Source: Dickeya poaceiphila
Lineage (GTDB): Bacteria; Pseudomonadota; Gammaproteobacteria; Enterobacterales; Enterobacteriaceae
Assembly: GCF_007858975.2 (NCBI RefSeq)
Contig: NZ_CP042220.2
Span: forward strand, 1,860,001-1,924,000
DNA: 64,000 nucleotides
Direction: 5' to 3'
Both the position numbers and the translations under genes were made by a program. Position 1 is the stretch's first letter. The number at the start of each line of letters is the position of its first letter. Of this stretch, positions 4,792 through 64,000 are shown piece by piece. Under the pieces are notes generated by a model that worked only from the letters and a program-made list of their open reading frames with translations, searched no databases and had not been told where the DNA came from.

Positions 4792-4870
4792 CCCAGACAT
4801 TTACTCAGGTAAGTGACTGGGGGGAGTGAGAAAAGCCAACACAGCGGCAACTTGACGTATGACGGGTATA
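4792..4870. repeat. partial ERIC element overlapping the guaD 3' end
   Basis: The stretch contains ACTCAGGTAAGTGACTGGGG and, further on, CAACTTGACGTATGACGGGT, the arms of an ERIC half. It covers the last codons and the stop of the guanine deaminase frame on the minus strand. The enzyme therefore ends in repeat-derived residues. Confidence 0.65.
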
Positions 4871-23354: not shown

Positions 23355-23854
23355 GTGACACCTTTAATTGCAGATAAAATATTGCAGATAAAATAAGGCC
23401 GAATAAAACGGGTCTTTTCTGACCCTTTATCCTCCAGAGGATTGGTGTTGCCCGCAATACAGGAGCGCTGTAGCGCTGATGGCACAACAACGGATAAAAA
23501 ACGTTTCGGTGAACAATTCCCCCGACCGATATTGATCGGCAGGGGGAGTGCGTGTTGTTCTACAACTCGAATTATTTAGGGTCTATAAAGTGAAATATAT
23601 CACCAACGAACAGATCTACACTGGGTCAAATAATACAATTTATATAATACAGGTCATGTAATACAGGTCATGCCAAATGTATATACCGGTTTTAACCGGG
23701 TAGGCTGTTGTTATTAAACAGTCTGAATACGAAAATAAATTTTGCTGTGTATCGGTCTGGCGCGTTGGCCACAGAGAAAATCCATTAATTTGTATGTGCT
23801 TCTGGCGGAGTGCCAGATTATTTCATGTCGGTCGTTATTATCCATCGCAATCCC
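23355..23854. other. intergenic region where capsid genes would be expected
   Basis: 500 bp with no supported gene. It lies at the position of the P2 packaging and head block (Q P O N M L), which is entirely missing. It is AT-rich and holds a 14-bp perfect tandem repeat, TAATACAGGTCATG at 23645-23658 and 23659-23672, which could be an operator. Confidence 0.45.
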
Positions 23855-56053: not shown

Positions 56054-57202
56054 ATGAGCAGCGCATTTTATATTCCAGCCTTAAACCTGATGGGCGAAGG
56101 TGCATTAGAGGAAGCGGCCAGGCAGATTCAGTTGCAGGGTTTCAAACACGCGTTAATCGTAACGGATGGCGTGCTGAACAAGATTGGTGTTGCGGCTTCC
56201 GTGCAGCAACTGCTGAAGAAATATCAGGTCGACAGTGAGGTGTATGACGGCGTGCAGCCGAACCCGACTGTGGCCAACGTCGATGCAGGCCTGAAAATTC
56301 TTAAAGCGAACCATAGTGACTGCGTCATATCGCTGGGCGGCGGTTCTTCCCATGACTGTGCTAAAGGGATCGCCTTGCTGGCGGCCAATGGTGGCGAAAT
56401 CGCCGATTATGAAGGCGTGGATGTGTCTGCCAAACCGCAGTTGCCGCTGATCGGCATCAACACCACGGCGGGGACGGCCTCTGAAATGACCCGTTTCTGC
56501 ATCATCACCGATGAAGTGCGCCACGTGAAAATGGCAATTGTTGATAAGAACGTGACACCGGTAATGTCCGTCAACGATCCGGTCTTGATGGTCGGTATGC
56601 CAGCGTCGCTGACCGCAGCAACCGGGATGGATGCACTGACCCATGCCATTGAAGCCTATGTCTCGACCGCTGCTAACCCGATTACCGATGCGGTTGCGAT
56701 TAAGGCGATGGAGCTGATTCGTGACCATCTGCGTGATGCGGTGAAAGACGGTAAAAACATAGTGGCGCGTGAACAGATGGCCTATGCCCAGTTCATGGCG
56801 GGTATGGCGTTCAATAATGCATCGCTGGGTTATGTTCATGCAATGGCGCACCAACTGGGCGGCTTCTACAACCTGCCGCACGGGGTATGTAACGCGGTAC
56901 TGTTGCCGCATGTAGAGCGTTATAACGCAGCGGTTGCCGCCCCTCGTCTGAAAGACGTCGCCGTCGCACTGGGTGTGGATGTCGCCGGTCTGAGCGATCA
57001 GCAGGCGGCGGAAGCGGCTATTAAGGCCATCAGCCAGATGGCGCGTGATGTCGGCATTCCGGCAGGGTTGAAAGACCTGGGTGTGAAAGAAGAAGACTTC
57101 AATATTCTGGCAGATAACGCACTGAAAGATGCTTGTGGCCTGACTAACCCGAAAAAAGCCACTCACGCGGAAATCGTCGAGATTTTTGCTGCTGCATTCT
57201 GA
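56054..57202 (+). CDS. yiaY: iron-dependent alcohol dehydrogenase (YiaY-like)
   Basis: 382 residues, class III Fe-ADH, very similar in order and wording to E. coli YiaY. NAD is bound at [17 protein letters not shown]. The metal ligands are Asp and His in [13 protein letters not shown], His in [11 protein letters not shown] and His in [13 protein letters not shown]. It interconverts an alcohol and an aldehyde with NAD(H); the natural substrate is not settled. A GGATGG ribosome site is present and a strong terminator follows. Its last 88 bp recur downstream of the toxin-antitoxin pair. Confidence 0.85.
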
Positions 57203-57206
57203 TTGT
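57119..57206 (+). repeat. 3' end of adh, first copy of an 88-bp imperfect direct repeat
   Basis: From GCACTGAAAGATG to CTGATTGT, covering the last codons of the dehydrogenase. A diverged copy with small deletions is at 57993-58078. Confidence 0.85.
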
Positions 57207-57337: not shown

Positions 57338-57559
57338 ATGAAAACGTACACCATTACTGAAGCTCGACAACATATTGCAACGGTCATTGATACGGCAGCC
57401 AGCGGTGAACCGGTGGAAATTACGCGCCGCAATGGGACGTCGGCTGTGCTCATCCCCAAGGCCGAATTCGAGGCTTATCAAAAAGCCAGATTAGACGCTG
57501 AATTTGATTTCATCATGCAGCGCCATGAACACACGGTCAAAGCGCTTGCCGACAGATGA
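57338..57559 (+). CDS. phd: Phd/YefM family antitoxin
   Basis: 73 residues. The N-terminal Phd/YefM DNA-binding fold is MKTYTITEARQHIATVIDTA with VEITRRNGTSAVLIPKAEFE. A short flexible C-terminal helix (RHEHTVKALAD) would wrap the toxin. A GAGGGGG ribosome site is present. It overlaps doc by 4 nt (ATGA). Confidence 0.9.
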   Translation: MKTYTITEARQHIATVIDTAASGEPVEITRRNGTSAVLIPKAEFEAYQKARLDAEFDFIMQRHEHTVKALADR

Positions 57560-57933
57560 AATGGGTCAGTGCACAGGACGTCATTGCTTTTCATGATCGC
57601 ATTCTGCAGATGTTGCCAGGGGTTGCCGGTATGGCAGATCCAGGTCGGGCGGAAGCCTTGATTTATCGGGTGCAGAACCGTCTTTATTATGAAGATGTGA
57701 CGGATCTCTTTGTACTGGCGGCGACATATTGGGTAACTGTTGCGCGTGGTCACATCTTTAATGACGGTAATAAGCGCACCGCCTTTTTTGTCACCATGGT
57801 GTTTTTGCACCGTAATGGCGTATTGATTGCTGATAACGACAATTCGCTGGAAGAATTGACCGTTAAAGCGGCAACGGGTGAATATCAGGTGTCATATCTC
57901 GCGGAGCAGTTAAGGCTAAGAGTGACAAGGTAA
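57556..57933 (+). CDS. doc: Doc (Fic-fold) toxin
   Basis: 125 residues with the Doc active-site loop HIFNDGNKRTAFF, a full match to HxFx(N/D)(A/D)GNKR, and the family N-terminus VSAQDVIAFHDRIL. Doc phosphorylates and inactivates elongation factor Tu; Phd blocks it. All catalytic residues are present, so the pair looks functional. The module is bracketed by two copies of the adh 3' end. Confidence 0.92.
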   Translation: MKWVSAQDVIAFHDRILQMLPGVAGMADPGRAEALIYRVQNRLYYEDVTDLFVLAATYWVTVARGHIFNDGNKRTAFFVTMVFLHRNGVLIADNDNSLEELTVKAATGEYQVSYLAEQLRLRVTR

Positions 57934-57992
57934 AAGGATAGATAGCGCGGAGATAAGGCAAGGAGATAAATAGCTTTTTTGTAGCGAGAAAT

Positions 57993-58078
57993 GCACTGAA
58001 AGATGCCAGTTCCTGACCAACCCGAAAAAGCCACTCACGCGAAAATTGTCGATATTTTTGCTGCTGCATTCTGATTGT
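57993..58078 (+). repeat. degenerate second copy of the adh 3' end
   Basis: About 85% like 57119-57206 with small deletions. GCACTGAAAGATGCCAG begins it and GCTGCTGCATTCTGATTGT ends it. The reading frame is broken by the deletions. It lies just before the acquired operon. Confidence 0.85.
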
Positions 58079-58085
58079 GAGTACT

Positions 58086-58121
58086 AAAAAGCCCCTGATT
58101 TTATGGTTGGGGGCTTTTTTT
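58086..58121. terminator. terminator at the boundary of the acquired operon
   Basis: AAAAAGCCCC...GGGGGCTTTTTTT around a 12-nt loop; A- and T-runs on the two sides allow action in both directions. It resembles the adh terminator and lies after the second adh 3' copy. The final codons and stop (58101-58103) of the oxygenase lie within it. Confidence 0.82.
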
Positions 58122-58851
58122 GATAAAAAAACCGGAGCATGAAACACGTGGTTGACTTGAAACTCCGCAATTAACCCGGTTGATTTTGTGAGCAATTCCA
58201 CCGCCTAAAACAACTAACCGGTTAGGTTTAGGTATTACATAAGTCCCTGTGCCGTTTTCAAGAAGAACACTGTCTTCTTTTGCACTGTCAAGGTGTCCGC
58301 CTGTCATTACGTTACGACCATTCGCTAAGGTGTGAGATACACGAATGTCGGCACCAGGGGCATGATTAGCCAGGAAAAGCTCGCCACCCCAGTTAGCCTT
58401 CCAGACAGGATTAGTATAAAAGATAAAGGCCCCAGAATATGCGCCATCCTGATGCCAGGAAAGGCCGCTTCCTTCTGGATAGATGTAGGGTTTAAATGTA
58501 GTGCCAAGCCACGCTTCCCCCGGTTTTCCAATGGTATGAGTTAATCTCGGTATCACTGCATCAAGCCTGCTCAGGAATTCATCAACGATATCACCAGTAG
58601 GACAGACCCGATATTCTCCTTTTTTATACCTTTTAGTACTGACGAGATGTTCTTCAACCGTGTGGTTTGAAAAAAATAAGGTTCCCATACATTGGGTTTC
58701 CATCGCCGATACGCCAGACTTTTGACCATTTTTCACGATTAACAACGCTATAATCATCTGTCTGACAATATTTCCAAAGCTCATGATGAACGTGTGTGTC
58801 AAGAAAATCATCAATAACAATATAATTTGGATGTTCAATCACTATGTTCAT
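58101..58851 (-). CDS. 2-oxoglutarate/Fe(II)-dependent oxygenase, frame interrupted
   Basis: Two overlapping frames make one protein. The first starts at the ATG at 58851 (MNIVIEHPNYIVIDDFLDTH, GGAG upstream) and would end soon after a run of seven T (58670-58676 on the plus strand). The second carries on with SNHTVEEHLVSTKRY. A -1 slip at the T-run, or one lost T, joins them as GNLIFFSNHTVEE. The metal site is HQD in LSWHQDGAYSG, the distal His is in GGGIAHKIN, and a cosubstrate Arg is in QPRVSCSGFF. It is the last gene of the operon, a probable hydroxylase or other oxidative tailoring enzyme. The end (KKSPQP) is read from the boundary terminator, so the native C-terminus may be lost. Confidence 0.78.
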
Positions 58852-58864
58852 TTTTGCTCCAGAT

Positions 58865-60100
58865 TCAATTCTCATAATTAAATTCACTGGTGATAAATAT
58901 CCCAATGATCCCTAATAATAAATAAGACAGCGCAGCAATTATCATGACAGCATTAAGACTAAATAGATGAATAAGCTCCGGTGCGGCCAGAAGAGAGAGC
59001 AGCAGAAATAACCATTCATAAAACATTCGGCAACGGAAAACTTTTACCACGTCCTCTTTGGTAAACAGTGTCTGCATTAGTGTTGCGAGAGGAAGCTGTG
59101 TTACAGGAGCGCCCAAAGCAGCTATTGCAGCAAACAGCATGATAAATGGCAAAGAATTGCTCAGCGCCAAACACAACAACGCTGCTCCGGAGAGTAGGCG
59201 CCCCGCTGACATTGCCAGGACGGGTTTATTCACTGTTAACTCAGAGAAAATTAGGTTTGATAACACATTGAATACACCATATATACCGAGAACGTACCCG
59301 AAGTATTCTGATTTTTCAGGGAAACTCAGATGAAGTTTTAAGGCAAGTCCTACAACAAGACTGACATACCATCCACCATTACAGAATGCGTAAGCAATCA
59401 GGTGATAATTAAGGGAAAATTTTTGGTTTAGAGCGGTAAATCCTCCTGATATTGCATCAATGTTTTTCTTTATGAAGCCAGCTCGGTCCGTATTTATTTT
59501 GGTAGCAGGTTCAATGAGGTTAAGTTCTCTGGAAACACTAAGAATGAAGAGCGCAGACAACAGGTAAGTAAGGGCGTTAACAGCAAAAAAATTATACACA
59601 GGCATCACGGTGAACATGAATGCTGCAAGCGCCGGGCCGGCAATACGTGCAATACGTCTGACGACGTCAAAAAGGCCATTAATCGATTGGAGAAATTGCC
59701 TGTCAGATGAAATTGAAGGTAGAATTGCCTGCAATGCTGGATCAAATACAGGGCGAAAGTAAGAGACAATGATGATCACGACAATCAATAATGTTGTAGA
59801 TACTTCGTGTGTAATATACCAACTGAGGAATGGAAGAAACGTCACAAAAAATCTGATAAGATCCGAAACCAGCATCATTTTCTTATTCGTCATGCCAACA
59901 GTGAACGCTCCAGATGTCAGAGTGGCAATTAAAATGACGGCAGATTGTAACGCAATAAGGTAACCCGACTTATTTCCAAAACGATTAGTTGCTATCCACA
60001 CTACAGCAAATGAATAAATTTCGGCACCAATACATGAAAGCGTGAGTCCACCCCACAAACGATTTATTATTCGGTGTTTTAACGCAGCTAACAGTTTCAT
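58865..60100 (-). CDS. MFS transporter (probable exporter of the operon product)
   Basis: 411 residues, about 12 membrane helices, MFS type related to MdtH/enterobactin-exporter-like permeases (RPVFDPALQAILPSISSDRQF, FDVVRRIARIAGPALAAF). The start overlaps the upstream ATP-grasp stop by 4 nt, so it belongs to the operon. In such clusters it normally exports the product and may confer self-resistance. AT-rich codons contrast with the core genes to the left. Confidence 0.82.
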   Translation of the reverse strand: MKLLAALKHRIINRLWGGLTLSCIGAEIYSFAVVWIATNRFGNKSGYLIALQSAVILIATLTSGAFTVGMTNKKMMLVSDLIRFFVTFLPFLSWYITHEVSTTLLIVVIIIVSYFRPVFDPALQAILPSISSDRQFLQSINGLFDVVRRIARIAGPALAAFMFTVMPVYNFFAVNALTYLLSALFILSVSRELNLIEPATKINTDRAGFIKKNIDAISGGFTALNQKFSLNYHLIAYAFCNGGWYVSLVVGLALKLHLSFPEKSEYFGYVLGIYGVFNVLSNLIFSELTVNKPVLAMSAGRLLSGAALLCLALSNSLPFIMLFAAIAALGAPVTQLPLATLMQTLFTKEDVVKVFRCRMFYEWLFLLLSLLAAPELIHLFSLNAVMIIAALSYLLLGIIGIFITSEFNYEN

Positions 60101-61104
60101 AAAATTAACTTTTTCTTTTTAAGAGCATTGAAAAGGTGGCTGATTGCTTCATCTGACTGATCTATACCAGACGCTTTATAGGAATAGTTGAGTGCACCAG
60201 GATTGACGAGGTTAAGTTCAAGAACATAGGGAAAAGCCAGATCCAGTCCCGCATAATAAATGCCGAGCGCCATGAGACGTTTGCCGAGGTGACGACAAAA
60301 CAGCGCTTCCTCTTTAGTCAGAGTAAGCGGATCAAACTTATTGCCTAATGTGACGTTCGCACGATGATCATCTTCGTGGTGATAGCGTCTGAAACCACAG
60401 ACAGGAATCCCCCCAACAATAAGCACGCGTTTTTCATTTTCCGTCACGTTCGGTACATATTTCTGTACAGCGGCAAATTTTCTTGATGATCCTATCGTTG
60501 GTCGTCCGTAGCGTTCATGGTTTGCGACCTCGTTACCTGTAGCAGATTGAACCAATGCACGGGCATTTTTCTCACGCATACTGATAAGGTAAACATCAGC
60601 ACCACATCCCTCGTTAGCAGGTTTGAGAACCCATGTTTGCTCCCTGTCTTCTTCAAGTTTGGCAAAAAGATACCTGTAGTCGCTGACAACATGGCTTTCC
60701 GGCAGATACTCACGAGGGATGGACTCTGAAAGGGTAATTTTGTTATTGAGAAAAAGCAGTGCTGAAGCGTCATTTACAAAAGGAACTCGTTGATTGAGGA
60801 CCCATAACATCTGAAAGGTTTCCAGATAAATATCAGGGTGAGGACTCGCAAGAGACCAGACCAGATCAATATCATCGACAACACGTGTTGTGCAAGGCAA
60901 TGTATCCAGACGTTCGCCTGAGTTTTTTACGCTGTCAAGTTCATAGCAGTCACTGTAAAAAATACTGTCACGGAGTGATATCGTGGTGATATCAGAAAGG
61001 AGTACTTTGCAGCCTGCACGCAACAATGCATTGGGAATGATGAGATAATTATCAAGGCGAAGATTTTCAACGCGGGAGACATAAACCAGAACAGTAATAT
61101 TCAT
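60097..61104 (-). CDS. ATP-grasp ligase, glutathione-synthetase-like
   Basis: 335 residues with an N-terminal Rossmann-like domain (ITVLVYVSRVENLRLDNYLI) and a GshB-type ATP-grasp domain. ATP binding is in TWVLKPANEGCGADVYLI; further blocks are ENEKRVLIVGGIPVCGFRRY and the magnesium-binding acidic end VLELNLVNPGALNYSY. It would activate a carboxylate as acyl phosphate and join it to an amine, as in glutathione synthesis. The substrates differ from GSH, since a genuine gshB is expected elsewhere. It is the third of three adjacent, mutually dissimilar ligases. Confidence 0.78.
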   Translation of the reverse strand: MNITVLVYVSRVENLRLDNYLIIPNALLRAGCKVLLSDITTISLRDSIFYSDCYELDSVKNSGERLDTLPCTTRVVDDIDLVWSLASPHPDIYLETFQMLWVLNQRVPFVNDASALLFLNNKITLSESIPREYLPESHVVSDYRYLFAKLEEDREQTWVLKPANEGCGADVYLISMREKNARALVQSATGNEVANHERYGRPTIGSSRKFAAVQKYVPNVTENEKRVLIVGGIPVCGFRRYHHEDDHRANVTLGNKFDPLTLTKEEALFCRHLGKRLMALGIYYAGLDLAFPYVLELNLVNPGALNYSYKASGIDQSDEAISHLFNALKKKKLIL

Positions 61105-61110
61105 TTTAGT

Positions 61111-62418
61111 CTATTCCTCTGTAAAAAAAACTGCTGGCGCGCATTCCGCACCTTGAGCACCATTAATAACTAGTTTTTCACTGTCAATGCTTAATCTTCT
61201 TAAATATACTCCGGCGAAATGACCGTTGAACACCATACCTCCGGCTGAGATAACGTAACGCTGACCAGAAGGATCGGTGAATATAGAGGTACGATTAATT
61301 TTTCTTTGCGCAACATAGCTGATTTTCGCTGACAATATGGTTTCTATAAGCGATTTCCAAGAATTATCAGAAGTTTCGCTTCCAATGCAAACTCCTTTAC
61401 CACCGTATTCAGAGGAAGGTTTTATAACCCAGTTGTTTTTTTCTTCACATATTTTTTGTTTGACGGTGTCATCAAGCGGAATTGTTTCTGTGATGATTTC
61501 AGCAAGGTCTTTTTCGATTTTTTTATCTCGTTTAGAGCTGAGAAGAACAAGGTTTTTCTTGTTGTCGTAAAGTGTATATAGTGGAGGGGAGATAAAGTCT
61601 ACCAAACCATTTTCATCTGCCTCTGCGAGGGATGATAGAATATCAAAAGGAACATACTTCTTAATTTCACCCCAGGTGAACCTGGTGTAAACAATGTCAA
61701 TACGAATATTATCAATAAAAACTCCTGTCGTTCGAATATCTAATTCCTGTATTATGCCGCTGATAACTTTAAATCCTGCTGATTCTGCCATGTCAATAAA
61801 GGATTTTCGCATAGGGCTTTTATCCAGAGCTGATGCAATAGCCTCGAACAGCACTGGGATTGTGTGTGATACAGAATTAGCAAGGGTGGAATGAAGCGCT
61901 TTCTGCCAGTGCGATTCAGGATGATCAAAATGGAGTCTGAATTTCTTTGAGCATGATATATGCTCAAAGAAAATTGTTTTTTGAAAAGAATCAATATAGT
62001 TAATATTTCCACTCATCCCCCCTATGGTTGCTGCAACATTAACTTCACACAGCCTGATACCATTGTCGGTAAGAATAAAATCAGGGCGCATGAAGAGCAA
62101 TGCACGTCTCTGAAATTTTTCTGAAGTAAATTTTTTTAGAAAATGAGACTCATAGTCATCATATCCAAGATAATCGATCCATGCATTGAAGTTACCATCA
62201 AAATAAAAATGAGGTATAGACGTGATTAATGTATTAAGTTGCAATGATCTTTTTTCAATTTCATCCCGCAATAAATGGTTTAAAATCGTGGGGGGATAAT
62301 AGTAACTTCTTCCCCTGATAGCAGTTTTTATCTTAAAATTAATGGTGTCGGTGTTGGTTATTTCATTTGGGAAATCACAGATGAAATTACTCCATATCTG
62401 ATTAGTAATATCTTTCAT
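61111..62418 (-). CDS. ATP-grasp-like ligase of unfamiliar subfamily
   Basis: 435 residues. The N-terminal half contains RGRSYYYPPTILNHLLRDEI and a segment with RPDFILTDNGIRLCEVNVAA, which reads like an acidic substrate or metal motif placed before the nucleotide site. The ATP-binding segment NNWVIKPSSEYGGKGVCIGS comes later, near residue 330. This order suggests a circularly permuted ATP-grasp. It is very AT-rich. It is separated from the neighbouring ligase genes by only 2-6 nt. Carbon-nitrogen ligation is the likely reaction; the substrates are unknown. Confidence 0.68.
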   Translation of the reverse strand: MKDITNQIWSNFICDFPNEITNTDTINFKIKTAIRGRSYYYPPTILNHLLRDEIEKRSLQLNTLITSIPHFYFDGNFNAWIDYLGYDDYESHFLKKFTSEKFQRRALLFMRPDFILTDNGIRLCEVNVAATIGGMSGNINYIDSFQKTIFFEHISCSKKFRLHFDHPESHWQKALHSTLANSVSHTIPVLFEAIASALDKSPMRKSFIDMAESAGFKVISGIIQELDIRTTGVFIDNIRIDIVYTRFTWGEIKKYVPFDILSSLAEADENGLVDFISPPLYTLYDNKKNLVLLSSKRDKKIEKDLAEIITETIPLDDTVKQKICEEKNNWVIKPSSEYGGKGVCIGSETSDNSWKSLIETILSAKISYVAQRKINRTSIFTDPSGQRYVISAGGMVFNGHFAGVYLRRLSIDSEKLVINGAQGAECAPAVFFTEE

Positions 62419-62420
62419 GA

Positions 62421-63614
62421 TTACGTGTCCATAACAGGATAAGATGAATTATTCAAAATTTCAATAACGTCTTCCCTTGCGGAAACATTCGGCGTCATCA
62501 CTATGATATGACCATAACGGTCTCTGAAATCACCATGAAAAATGCTTTCTTTGCGCTTGTTTTCATCAAAACACAGCACCGCTTCCTGACATTTTTCTTT
62601 CAGACATCGAAATACGCGGTGATTTAACTTATTACCTTTAACAATAAATCGGATAGCTGAAAAGTTATTTTCAGGTTTCGATAAATCAACGATGTTACCC
62701 GTGCAATAATCAATACATGCTTTTATTAAATCGGAGCCTGTCGATAGTCTGAAAATTTCAGGAATATACCCACCTGCTAAACGAGGGTTCACTTCAATAA
62801 TTTTTATGTTCTCGTCTTGCAAGAATCGTACTTCAATGTGTACGGGGCCTGATGTCAGACCAAACAGCGATATAACCCGTCCAATTAGAGTAGTCAGAGC
62901 GGTTGTTTTTTCCGTTTCTAGTAAAGCTGGGAAATCATGACCTACTGCAATCATTCTGGGAAAATAATCATAATGCTGGTGGGTTATTCCAACAATGTTG
63001 CTGTTGAATACTTCAACTGAGTATTGTTCCCCAGGGTAGTACTTTTCAATAATCCACTCGGTAGTCGATACGGAAGATCCGAAAACAGTACTTAATGCAC
63101 GGAGCAGCTCGTTTTCATCGCTAATGGCAAGTACTCCGACACTTCCTGAACAATCCACGGGTTTGATAATAACCGGAAAACCTACAGAGTGTACAAAATG
63201 CAGTACTGCTGCCTTGTCTGTAATTTCAGAAAATGGCGTATAACTTAACTGGTGACGATTCAATTGCTCTCTTTGAAATTTTTTGTTCCTCACCGCCTTG
63301 ATACGTTCGCAATCAAGTGATGGAAGATTAAGTAATGATGCCAGCTCAGAAGCAGTAGAAATATAATACTCTGATGTTGACCAGACACCGGCTACATTTT
63401 CAGTCCCAAGTTCAGATGCAACAGAATGTAGAATATGATCAATATTGCTTGTATCGACCTTGATAGTCCGGAAAGGCGCTTTATTAAGAAAATGATAGCG
63501 ATTTCCATCTCGATACATTAAGACCGGTTCATAGCCAGCTTTTGATGCCCTTTCCAGAAATATCTCTCCAGTTCCTGTTGTGTTACTTTCCACGAAAATG
63601 AGATATTTCATCAC
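62421..63614 (-). CDS. ATP-grasp ligase, L-amino-acid-ligase (BacD)-like
   Basis: 397 residues in the biotin-carboxylase-like ATP-grasp layout. The N-terminal domain is KYLIFVESNTTGTGEIFLER. Next comes RNKKFQREQLNRHQLSYTPF, the lid and ATP segment (VGFPVIIKPVDCSGSVGVLA, WIIEKYYPGEQYSVEVF), and the catalytic end (VHIEVRFL and IIEVNPRLAGGYIPEIF). Relatives condense two free amino acids to a dipeptide. The start overlaps the stop of the PLP enzyme by 4 nt. Confidence 0.8.
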   Translation of the reverse strand: MMKYLIFVESNTTGTGEIFLERASKAGYEPVLMYRDGNRYHFLNKAPFRTIKVDTSNIDHILHSVASELGTENVAGVWSTSEYYISTASELASLLNLPSLDCERIKAVRNKKFQREQLNRHQLSYTPFSEITDKAAVLHFVHSVGFPVIIKPVDCSGSVGVLAISDENELLRALSTVFGSSVSTTEWIIEKYYPGEQYSVEVFNSNIVGITHQHYDYFPRMIAVGHDFPALLETEKTTALTTLIGRVISLFGLTSGPVHIEVRFLQDENIKIIEVNPRLAGGYIPEIFRLSTGSDLIKACIDYCTGNIVDLSKPENNFSAIRFIVKGNKLNHRVFRCLKEKCQEAVLCFDENKRKESIFHGDFRDRYGHIIVMTPNVSAREDVIEILNNSSYPVMDT

Positions 63615-64000
63615 GGCTTGGCCTTCCTGCCCCAGTGAAACATGGACCAGCGGGTAAGTTCTTCATCTGGCACACTGACTTTTTTGGGGGAGAGAGTACT
63701 GAACTGTGCAGAACCCCAACCGGGAACAGTATTCATCCAGTCATCATTGTAGATTGTGTCAAAATAACGATGACCTTCATCAGGAAACAACGCTATCGTG
63801 ACTTTGTCAGGATTATGTTGTGCATACCAATTAGCTACGAGATAAGCCGCTCCACTTGTTCCCCCCATAAACAGACCATATTTTCGATAAATCTCTCGTG
63901 TTGCAATATAGGCTTCTCTGGCACTGACCCAGTGTATTTCATCGAATTCTTCATAACGAATATTTCCCGGAATGATGCTATTACCCAATCCACGTAATAA
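63611..64000 (-). CDS. PLP-dependent cysteine-synthase-like enzyme (partial, C-terminal part)
   Basis: The frame is open to the right edge, so the start is beyond the window. About 129 residues are visible. The piece LRGLGNSIIPGNI, the loop GLFMGGTSGAAYLVANW and the segment VTIALFPDEGHRYFDTIYND follow the C-terminal third of cysteine synthase/SbnA-type fold-II enzymes (compare their GxSSGA and FPDxGxRY motifs). The cofactor lysine is not in view. These enzymes replace a beta substituent on serine derivatives, making cysteine or unusual amino acids such as 2,3-diaminopropionate. It stands first of the visible operon genes, fitting a precursor-making role. Confidence 0.82.
   Translation of the reverse strand, partial: LLRGLGNSIIPGNIRYEEFDEIHWVSAREAYIATREIYRKYGLFMGGTSGAAYLVANWYAQHNPDKVTIALFPDEGHRYFDTIYNDDWMNTVPGWGSAQFSTLSPKKVSVPDEELTRWSMFHWGRKAKP

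What the first reader, a model, noticed from the sequence alone, without database searches (positions are those of the whole stretch)
58101..64000. Uncharacterised NRPS-independent peptide pathway: PLP enzyme, three ATP-grasp ligases, MFS exporter, Fe(II) oxygenase
Six tightly packed minus-strand genes (overlaps or gaps of a few nt up to the MFS gene, 13 nt before the oxygenase), clearly more AT-rich than the flanking core genome. The set is coherent: a fold-II PLP enzyme that can make a non-protein amino acid, three ligases from three different ATP-grasp branches (BacD-like, permuted, GshB-like) that could join three or four units in order, an exporter and an oxidative tailoring enzyme. I know clusters that share parts of it (bacilysin, dapdiamide, SbnA-containing siderophores), but none with this gene set. 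A plant pathogen could use the product as an antimetabolite, toxin or metallophore.
Basis: partly seen in the sequence, partly recalled or inferred. Interest (0 to 1): 0.82.

Follow-up and report, generated by a model that had tools for sequence, protein, structure and literature searches.

The report
Three-ligase peptide-making gene cluster
A bacterial operon, probably acquired from another species, carries an amino-acid-forming enzyme, three different stand-alone peptide ligases and an exporter; it belongs to a sparsely spread, apparently uncharacterised cluster family shared with Paludibacterium and Streptomyces, and one tailoring gene in it is interrupted by a frame change.

Summary
Six packed minus-strand genes lie in an AT-rich insert; extended past the window, the operon begins at about 64657. 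New: the set recurs elsewhere. A pattern scan of 84,980 species genomes with the GshB-like ligase gave 20 loci at 45% identity or more, plus one plasmid. Of these 21, 21 hold an ATP-grasp_4 ligase homolog (one doubtful), 19 a PLP enzyme homolog, 15 the permuted ligase. In Paludibacterium five of the six genes stand in a row (GshB-like 73%, PLP 64%, MFS 58%). The permuted ligase models confidently as a eukaryotic-glutathione-synthetase/GspS-type fold. Three PLP-enzyme types accompany the ligases, suggesting a ligase chassis with an exchangeable front end. I read it as an NRPS-independent oligopeptide pathway for an exported antimetabolite-like product with a Dap-like residue; nothing found favours a metallophore. 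Product, substrates and order are unknown. No description was found in the papers searched; MIBiG was not searchable. New variant of a known kind.

The parts
63611..64000 (-). PLP enzyme (fold II, SbnA/cysteine-synthase-like, 348 aa), first gene; continues past the window to about 64657 (L005 7611-8657)
62421..63614 (-). ATP-grasp_4 ligase (397 aa); best NCBIfam match is the ATP-grasp part of PRK02186 (under its cut-off)
61111..62418 (-). Circularly permuted ATP-grasp ligase (435 aa), eukaryotic-GSS/GspS-type fold by model
60097..61104 (-). GshB-like ATP-grasp ligase (335 aa); 73% identical in Paludibacterium, 46-56% in the related actinobacterial loci
58865..60100 (-). MFS exporter (411 aa)
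58654..58851 (-). 2OG-Fe(II) oxygenase, N-terminal piece (65 codons), in one frame
58101..58680 (-). 2OG-Fe(II) oxygenase, C-terminal piece with the 2OG-FeII_Oxy domain, in another frame; the frame change lies near a run of T at about 58670 (upper limit approximate)
58087..58121 (.). Terminator-like hairpin that the congeners have behind the Fe-ADH gene; the oxygenase stop codon lies inside it, marking the left junction of the insert

Best explanation
A horizontally acquired, NRPS-independent peptide natural-product operon. Shown: the gene set, its insertion point, the recurrence of the set elsewhere, the fold of the permuted ligase (model) and the broken oxygenase frame. Inferred: the PLP enzyme makes a beta-substituted alanine (2,3-diaminopropionate-like) from a core activated serine such as O-phosphoserine; the ATP-grasp_4 enzyme joins it to an amino acid; the GshB-like and the permuted GSS/GspS-like ligases add two further units (amino acid or amine), giving a tri- to tetrapeptide or peptide amide; the MFS protein exports it. 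The oxygenase was a lineage-specific late tailoring step and is probably not made in full in this strain, unless the frame change is a sequencing error or is bypassed. Most likely use: an antimetabolite-type peptide against neighbours.
For: Recurring set: 21 loci with a GshB-like match at 45% or more; ATP-grasp_4 homolog in 21 (one doubtful), PLP homolog in 19, permuted ligase in 15. Paludibacterium L088 has PLP 64%, ATP-grasp_4 41%, GshB-like 73%, MFS 58%, permuted 33% in a row on one strand. A Pantoea plasmid has GHMP kinase, PLP, ATP-grasp, GshB-like, MFS, M17 peptidase, methyltransferase. An M17 peptidase also lies in L090, fitting a bioactive peptide. The PLP enzyme keeps the Lys and two of three residues recalled as phospho-substrate contacts of SbnA. 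Precedent: two ATP-grasp ligases make tripeptides (PMC11867202, passages).
Against: No product is known to me for any relative seen. No SbnB match in the genome, so the SbnA/SbnB route to Dap is not evident; the nucleophile is unknown. The third SbnA residue is Gly. The oxygenase is broken and has no homolog in the 21 loci. In the actinobacterial loci the ATP-grasp_4 and PLP homologs are only 21-36% identical, so they may act on other substrates. Substrates and order cannot be computed here.
Confidence: 0.72

Rival explanations
1. Metallophore pathway: the PLP product and ligases build a metal-binding peptide, exported by the MFS protein.
For: The nearest solved PLP enzyme is called a probable siderophore biosynthesis protein, SbnA; staphyloferrin B is recalled.
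Against: No Fur consensus in L005 at up to 3 mismatches; Zur-like pattern 2 times against 3.85 by chance, neither upstream; no uptake gene in the operon; opened relatives carry peptidase, methyltransferase or NRPS genes.
Confidence: 0.12
2. 2,3-Diaminobutyrate-type amino acid: the PLP enzyme acts on O-phosphothreonine, as suggested by the linked kinase and ArgH genes of its relatives.
For: All six other MKLLPA-type PLP loci that I opened have a GHMP-type or annotated kinase gene nearby, four of six an ArgH-like gene; 488 plasmid records matched the PLP enzyme in all.
Against: No such kinase in this operon or among the L088 neighbours tested; none found in the genome by one query without positive control; the best ArgH-like match in the genome is 37% identical and taken to be housekeeping.
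Confidence: 0.2
3. Thiol or storage peptide: the two glutathione-synthetase-like ligases make a glutathione/glutathionylspermidine-like compound for redox use.
For: GshB-like sequence and GSS/GspS-like fold.
Against: Exporter in the operon; only the own genome among 9 of the genus has it; natural-product genes beside relatives.
Confidence: 0.06
4. Decaying operon with no function: the broken oxygenase is the first sign of loss.
For: Frame change in one gene; no copy in the other 8 genomes of the genus.
Against: The other five genes are open over their whole length; the two ligases aligned to their families keep the invariant residues; the oxygenase is not part of the recurring set.
Confidence: 0.15

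Closest known systems
Phosphonoalamide pathway (PnaB/PnaC), Streptomyces; PMC11867202, passages
   Same: Stand-alone ATP-grasp ligases build a tripeptide around a special amino acid made by a PLP enzyme.
   Different: Phosphonate headgroup, aminotransferase, two ligases; a permuted ligase or cysteine-synthase-like enzyme is not mentioned in the passages seen.
Dapdiamide (dda) and bacilysin (bac) pathways (recalled)
   Same: Non-protein amino acid plus ATP-grasp ligase and exporter; oxygenase in dda.
   Different: DdaF and BacD models are far under cut-off (34.4 of 840; 21.9 of 850); no NRPS domain in the operon.
SbnA of siderophore biosynthesis
   Same: Nearest solved PLP enzyme (1.2e-37); catalytic Lys and the aligned Arg and Tyr kept.
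   Different: 215.7 bits against a cut-off of 349.95, Ser replaced by Gly, MKLLPA motif, no SbnB match in the genome.
Diaminobutyrate modules of lipopeptides and uridyl peptides (friulimicin, pacidamycin: recalled)
   Same: Homologous PLP enzyme beside an ATP-grasp gene in kinase-PLP-grasp-ArgH modules (L078, L083, L087). A gausemycin paper reports cysteine-synthase and ArgH genes in one such cluster without tying them to diaminobutyrate (PMC12471526, passage).
   Different: No kinase or ArgH in this operon.
Glutathionylspermidine synthetase / YgiC / YjfC / eukaryotic GSS
   Different: 10-15% identity; sits in natural-product-like clusters.
Predicted ATP-grasp and MtRS-like peptide operons of PMC2922099 (passages)
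   Same: Predicted non-ribosomal peptide operons with ATP-grasp and sometimes cysteine-synthase genes in plant-associated bacteria, Dickeya among them.
   Different: Built around a methionyl-tRNA-synthetase paralog or an oxygenase-cupin protein; neither is in this operon.

Membership tests
SbnA (2,3-diaminopropionate biosynthesis) | NCBIfam TIGR03945 equivalog cut-off | tested here: not met
   215.7 bits, cut-off 349.95
SbnA (2,3-diaminopropionate biosynthesis) | Phospho-substrate residues Arg132, Tyr152, Ser185 (roles and numbers recalled) | tested here: not met
   Arg and Tyr kept, Ser is Gly by alignment
SbnA (2,3-diaminopropionate biosynthesis) | SbnB partner in the genome | tested here: not met
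   0 matches at E 0.001; the control matched 8 of 14 genomes, none over the family cut-off
Bacterial glutathione synthase GshB | NCBIfam equivalog cut-off | tested here: not met
   102.8 of 272; 79.7 of 299.05
Dapdiamide synthase DdaF / bacilysin ligase BacD | NCBIfam equivalog cut-off | tested here: not met
   34.4 of 840; 21.9 of 850
Permuted GSS/GspS-type ATP-grasp | Fold over most of the chain | tested here: met
Diaminobutyrate module (recalled) | GHMP kinase and ArgH-like lyase beside the PLP enzyme | tested here: not met
   absent from the operon
Three-ligase PLP cluster family (defined here) | GshB-like, ATP-grasp_4, permuted ligase and PLP enzyme together | tested here: met
   15 of 21 loci have all three ligases, 14 of these also a PLP homolog
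Three-ligase PLP cluster family (defined here) | Peptide product | not testable with these tools
   needs enzyme assays

The most novel reading that the evidence does not exclude
A recurring three-ligase chassis (ATP-grasp_4, GshB-like, permuted GSS/GspS-like) that different bacteria couple to three different fold-II PLP enzymes, so that one assembly line carries exchangeable amino-acid warheads, with the permuted ligase acting as a dedicated natural-product C-terminal capping enzyme.
Probability: 0.4. Interest if true: 0.75.

Novelty: new variant of a known kind. Interest (0 to 1): 0.62.

Why it matters
It would add a peptide assembly line without modules or carrier proteins, made of three small ligases, with natural variation in the first building block. 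Such enzymes are attractive for making defined tri- and tetrapeptides, and the family gives named Streptomyces and Amycolatopsis strains in which the product can be looked for. A GspS/eukaryotic-GSS-type ligase in natural-product-like clusters also opens a use for a fold known mostly from thiol metabolism.

Tried and rejected
Searches that led nowhere: permuted ligase as sole query in genome contigs (no relative) and as profile in viral contigs (none); DNA search of the operon in plasmids (none); tRNA genes (none); Rfam (none at gathering score); Fur and Zur-like patterns. Permuted-ligase matches in other Enterobacterales were mostly C-terminal only: 25 of 394 genomes at E 1e-10 or better, own included, of which only the own genome and G349 are near full length.

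Considered and rejected: phosphonate pathway (no such domain in the operon); PNP-1-like cluster (different genes; PMC4010436 passages and outline). The PLP tree (29 rows) joins our enzyme with Paludibacterium (100/100) but does not resolve the MKLLPA group as a clade (57/82, L087 outside) and warns that long branches meet; the three types rest on motifs more than on the tree.

Limits of the counts: the scan used two peptide patterns, so it is a lower bound. The 21-locus count takes 20 of its 38 loci plus one (L080) of 13 further loci given to that call; the other 18 scanned loci (GshB-like under 45%) had no other operon homolog at E 1e-5, and L081 and L086 fell just short at 43%. L118's GshB-like match covers 131 residues only and its ATP-grasp hit is 7.9 kb away on the other strand. 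Locus flanks differ in length, so absences are lower bounds. For most loci genes were found by tblastn, not by Pfam.
Full report
What is there. The window is bases 1860001-1924000 of a 4.32 Mb single-contig genome. Window 58101-64000 holds a minus-strand operon whose first gene runs past the window. With the right flank (L005; window coordinate = L005 + 56000) the order is: PLP enzyme 63611-64657 (348 aa), ATP-grasp_4 ligase 62421-63614, permuted ATP-grasp ligase 61111-62418, GshB-like ligase 60097-61104, MFS exporter 58865-60100, and a 2OG-Fe(II) oxygenase from ATG 58851. Neighbouring genes overlap by 4 nt or are 2-13 nt apart. No ORF of 90 aa or more lies between the PLP gene and an ABC-ATPase gene (potA-like by reading) at L005 9897.

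The broken oxygenase. The first 65 codons and the C-terminal part lie in different frames that overlap near a run of T. Searched apart against three relatives only (so the E-values are for a tiny set), the N piece matches residues 1-61 of a Serratia plasmid oxygenase (1e-12) and 3-66 of a Cupriavidus one (4e-11), but not convincingly the Streptomyces one (0.41); the C piece matches all three (9e-31, 1e-27, 2e-25). These relatives are single open frames of 243, 220 and 233 aa. Whether this is a lesion, slippage or a sequencing error cannot be told from one genome.

Insertion. GC is 36-44% in the operon; flanking 1-kb windows range 46-61%, 33 of 45 at 53% or more. Of 9 genomes of the genus, only the own one holds the operon DNA, and 0 of 8 others the permuted ligase. 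In all 8 others the 3' end of the Fe-ADH gene and a terminator-like hairpin align to the window up to 58114-58126 (in L027 in two pieces); the oxygenase stop codon lies inside that hairpin, so the left junction is at about 58121-58127. On the right the insert meets a 127-bp repeat with a 90% copy at 2336-2462. The right flank was found in the fetched DNA of 7 of 8 congeners; in the three whose ORFs I listed, the spot holds other genes. So this is a variable site.

Relatives. Single-protein searches found little: the permuted ligase matched 7 of 394 order genomes and 13 of 369 class genomes, own included, mostly partially; the ATP-grasp_4 ligase at E 1e-20 matched 9 of 295 family and 6 of 398 phylum genomes, own included, at 26-31% identity apart from itself. 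Plasmid tblastn gave leads, and an alignment of six GshB-like ligases scanned against 84,980 species genomes with two peptide patterns gave 38 loci. Paludibacterium L088 (a MAG contig, so the host label is less sure) carries PLP (64%), ATP-grasp_4 (41%), GshB-like (73%), MFS (58%) and permuted ligase (33%) in a row. With the S. globosus plasmid, 21 loci have a GshB-like match at 45% or more: ATP-grasp_4 homolog in 21 (20 of them about 1.1-1.3 kb upstream, L118 doubtful), PLP homolog in 19, permuted ligase in 15, our MFS type in 2, our oxygenase in 0. Two of them have a PhyH-type oxygenase instead (L089, L091). The remaining 18 loci of the scan showed none of the other genes. So a set of three ligases and a PLP enzyme recurs across Proteobacteria and Actinobacteria; this oxygenase looks like an addition of the present lineage.

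Exchangeable PLP enzymes. Of 29 PLP rows, 8 have MKLLPA around the PLP lysine (ours, Paludibacterium, and six plasmid loci), 4 SIKDRAA, 13 EVMK followed by V(T/A)SV; the other 4 are L118, L023 and two cysteine-synthase-like paralogs of the own genome. Among the 21 loci only L088 has the MKLLPA type; the four SIKDRAA loci all have the permuted ligase, of the 13 EVMK loci nine do. The six other MKLLPA loci, which I opened because they ranked high in the plasmid searches, have a kinase gene nearby and four of them an ArgH-like gene. That arrangement resembles, by recall, diaminobutyrate modules. Our operon and the L088 neighbours tested lack both. No SbnB match is in the genome (the control matched 8 of 14 genomes, none over cut-off). 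The Arg and Tyr recalled as phosphate contacts in SbnA are kept, Ser is Gly. I infer a substrate available from core metabolism, O-phosphoserine first.

Mechanism and use. Inferred: the PLP enzyme makes the special residue, ATP-grasp_4 makes a dipeptide, the other two ligases extend or cap it, MFS exports it. Precedent: PnaC and PnaB make phosphonoalamide tripeptides (PMC11867202, passages). M17 aminopeptidases in the Pantoea and Amycolatopsis relatives fit a peptide that is activated or neutralised by cleavage. The lack of a Fur consensus, of Zur-like sites above chance and of an uptake gene speaks against a metallophore, weakly, since other regulators are possible.

Literature. Searches for ATP-grasp ligase since 2018 (56 papers, 40 listings seen), ATP-grasp with Dickeya (5), circularly permuted ATP-grasp with biosynthetic gene cluster (0), Pantoea with ATP-grasp (6, 5 listed) and others found no description of this set. 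Of seven papers fetched I saw passages, for PMC4010436 also the abstract and outline. MIBiG was not searchable and the library lacks most subscription papers.

Noticed in passing
window 57116-57206 and 57990-58078: About 90 bp of the Fe-ADH 3' end is duplicated (94% over 54 nt) on either side of a doc-type toxin gene (57556-57933). Congeners G007 and G008 also match the doc region; G008 has the duplication but not the operon, so the duplication seems older than the insert.
   Followed up: partly
window 65179-65305 (L005 9179-9305); copies at 2336-2462, 4801-4870, 1949-1978, 23564-23587: A dispersed repeat of about 127 bp, ERIC/REP-like by recall, borders the insert on the right.
   Followed up: partly
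L036, L040, L042: The same spot in these three congeners holds a gene pair that I read (no family search) as a DUF1852-like protein and a MetE-like methionine synthase, and other varying genes.
   Followed up: no
L043 3442-12732: Another Enterobacterales genome (G349) has, by reading, carbamoyltransferase, SGNH protein, ATP-grasp, permuted ATP-grasp, PhyH-like oxygenase, a membrane-fusion-like protein and an MFS-like transporter in a row: a second ligase-type cluster.
   Followed up: partly
L079 8890-16308: A Pantoea agglomerans plasmid typed as conjugative, from rotten potato, carries GHMP kinase, PLP, ATP-grasp, GshB-like, MFS, M17 aminopeptidase and methyltransferase genes: a related cluster without the permuted ligase.
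   Followed up: yes
L093 6812-13324, L105 10460-16978: In two actinobacteria the three-ligase set is followed by a very long open frame; in L105 its first 1180 aa have NRPS domains, L093 was not tested.
   Followed up: partly
L126 5992-9656: Serratia liquefaciens plasmid: methyltransferase, hypothetical protein, an oxygenase related to ours and an MFS gene side by side.
   Followed up: no
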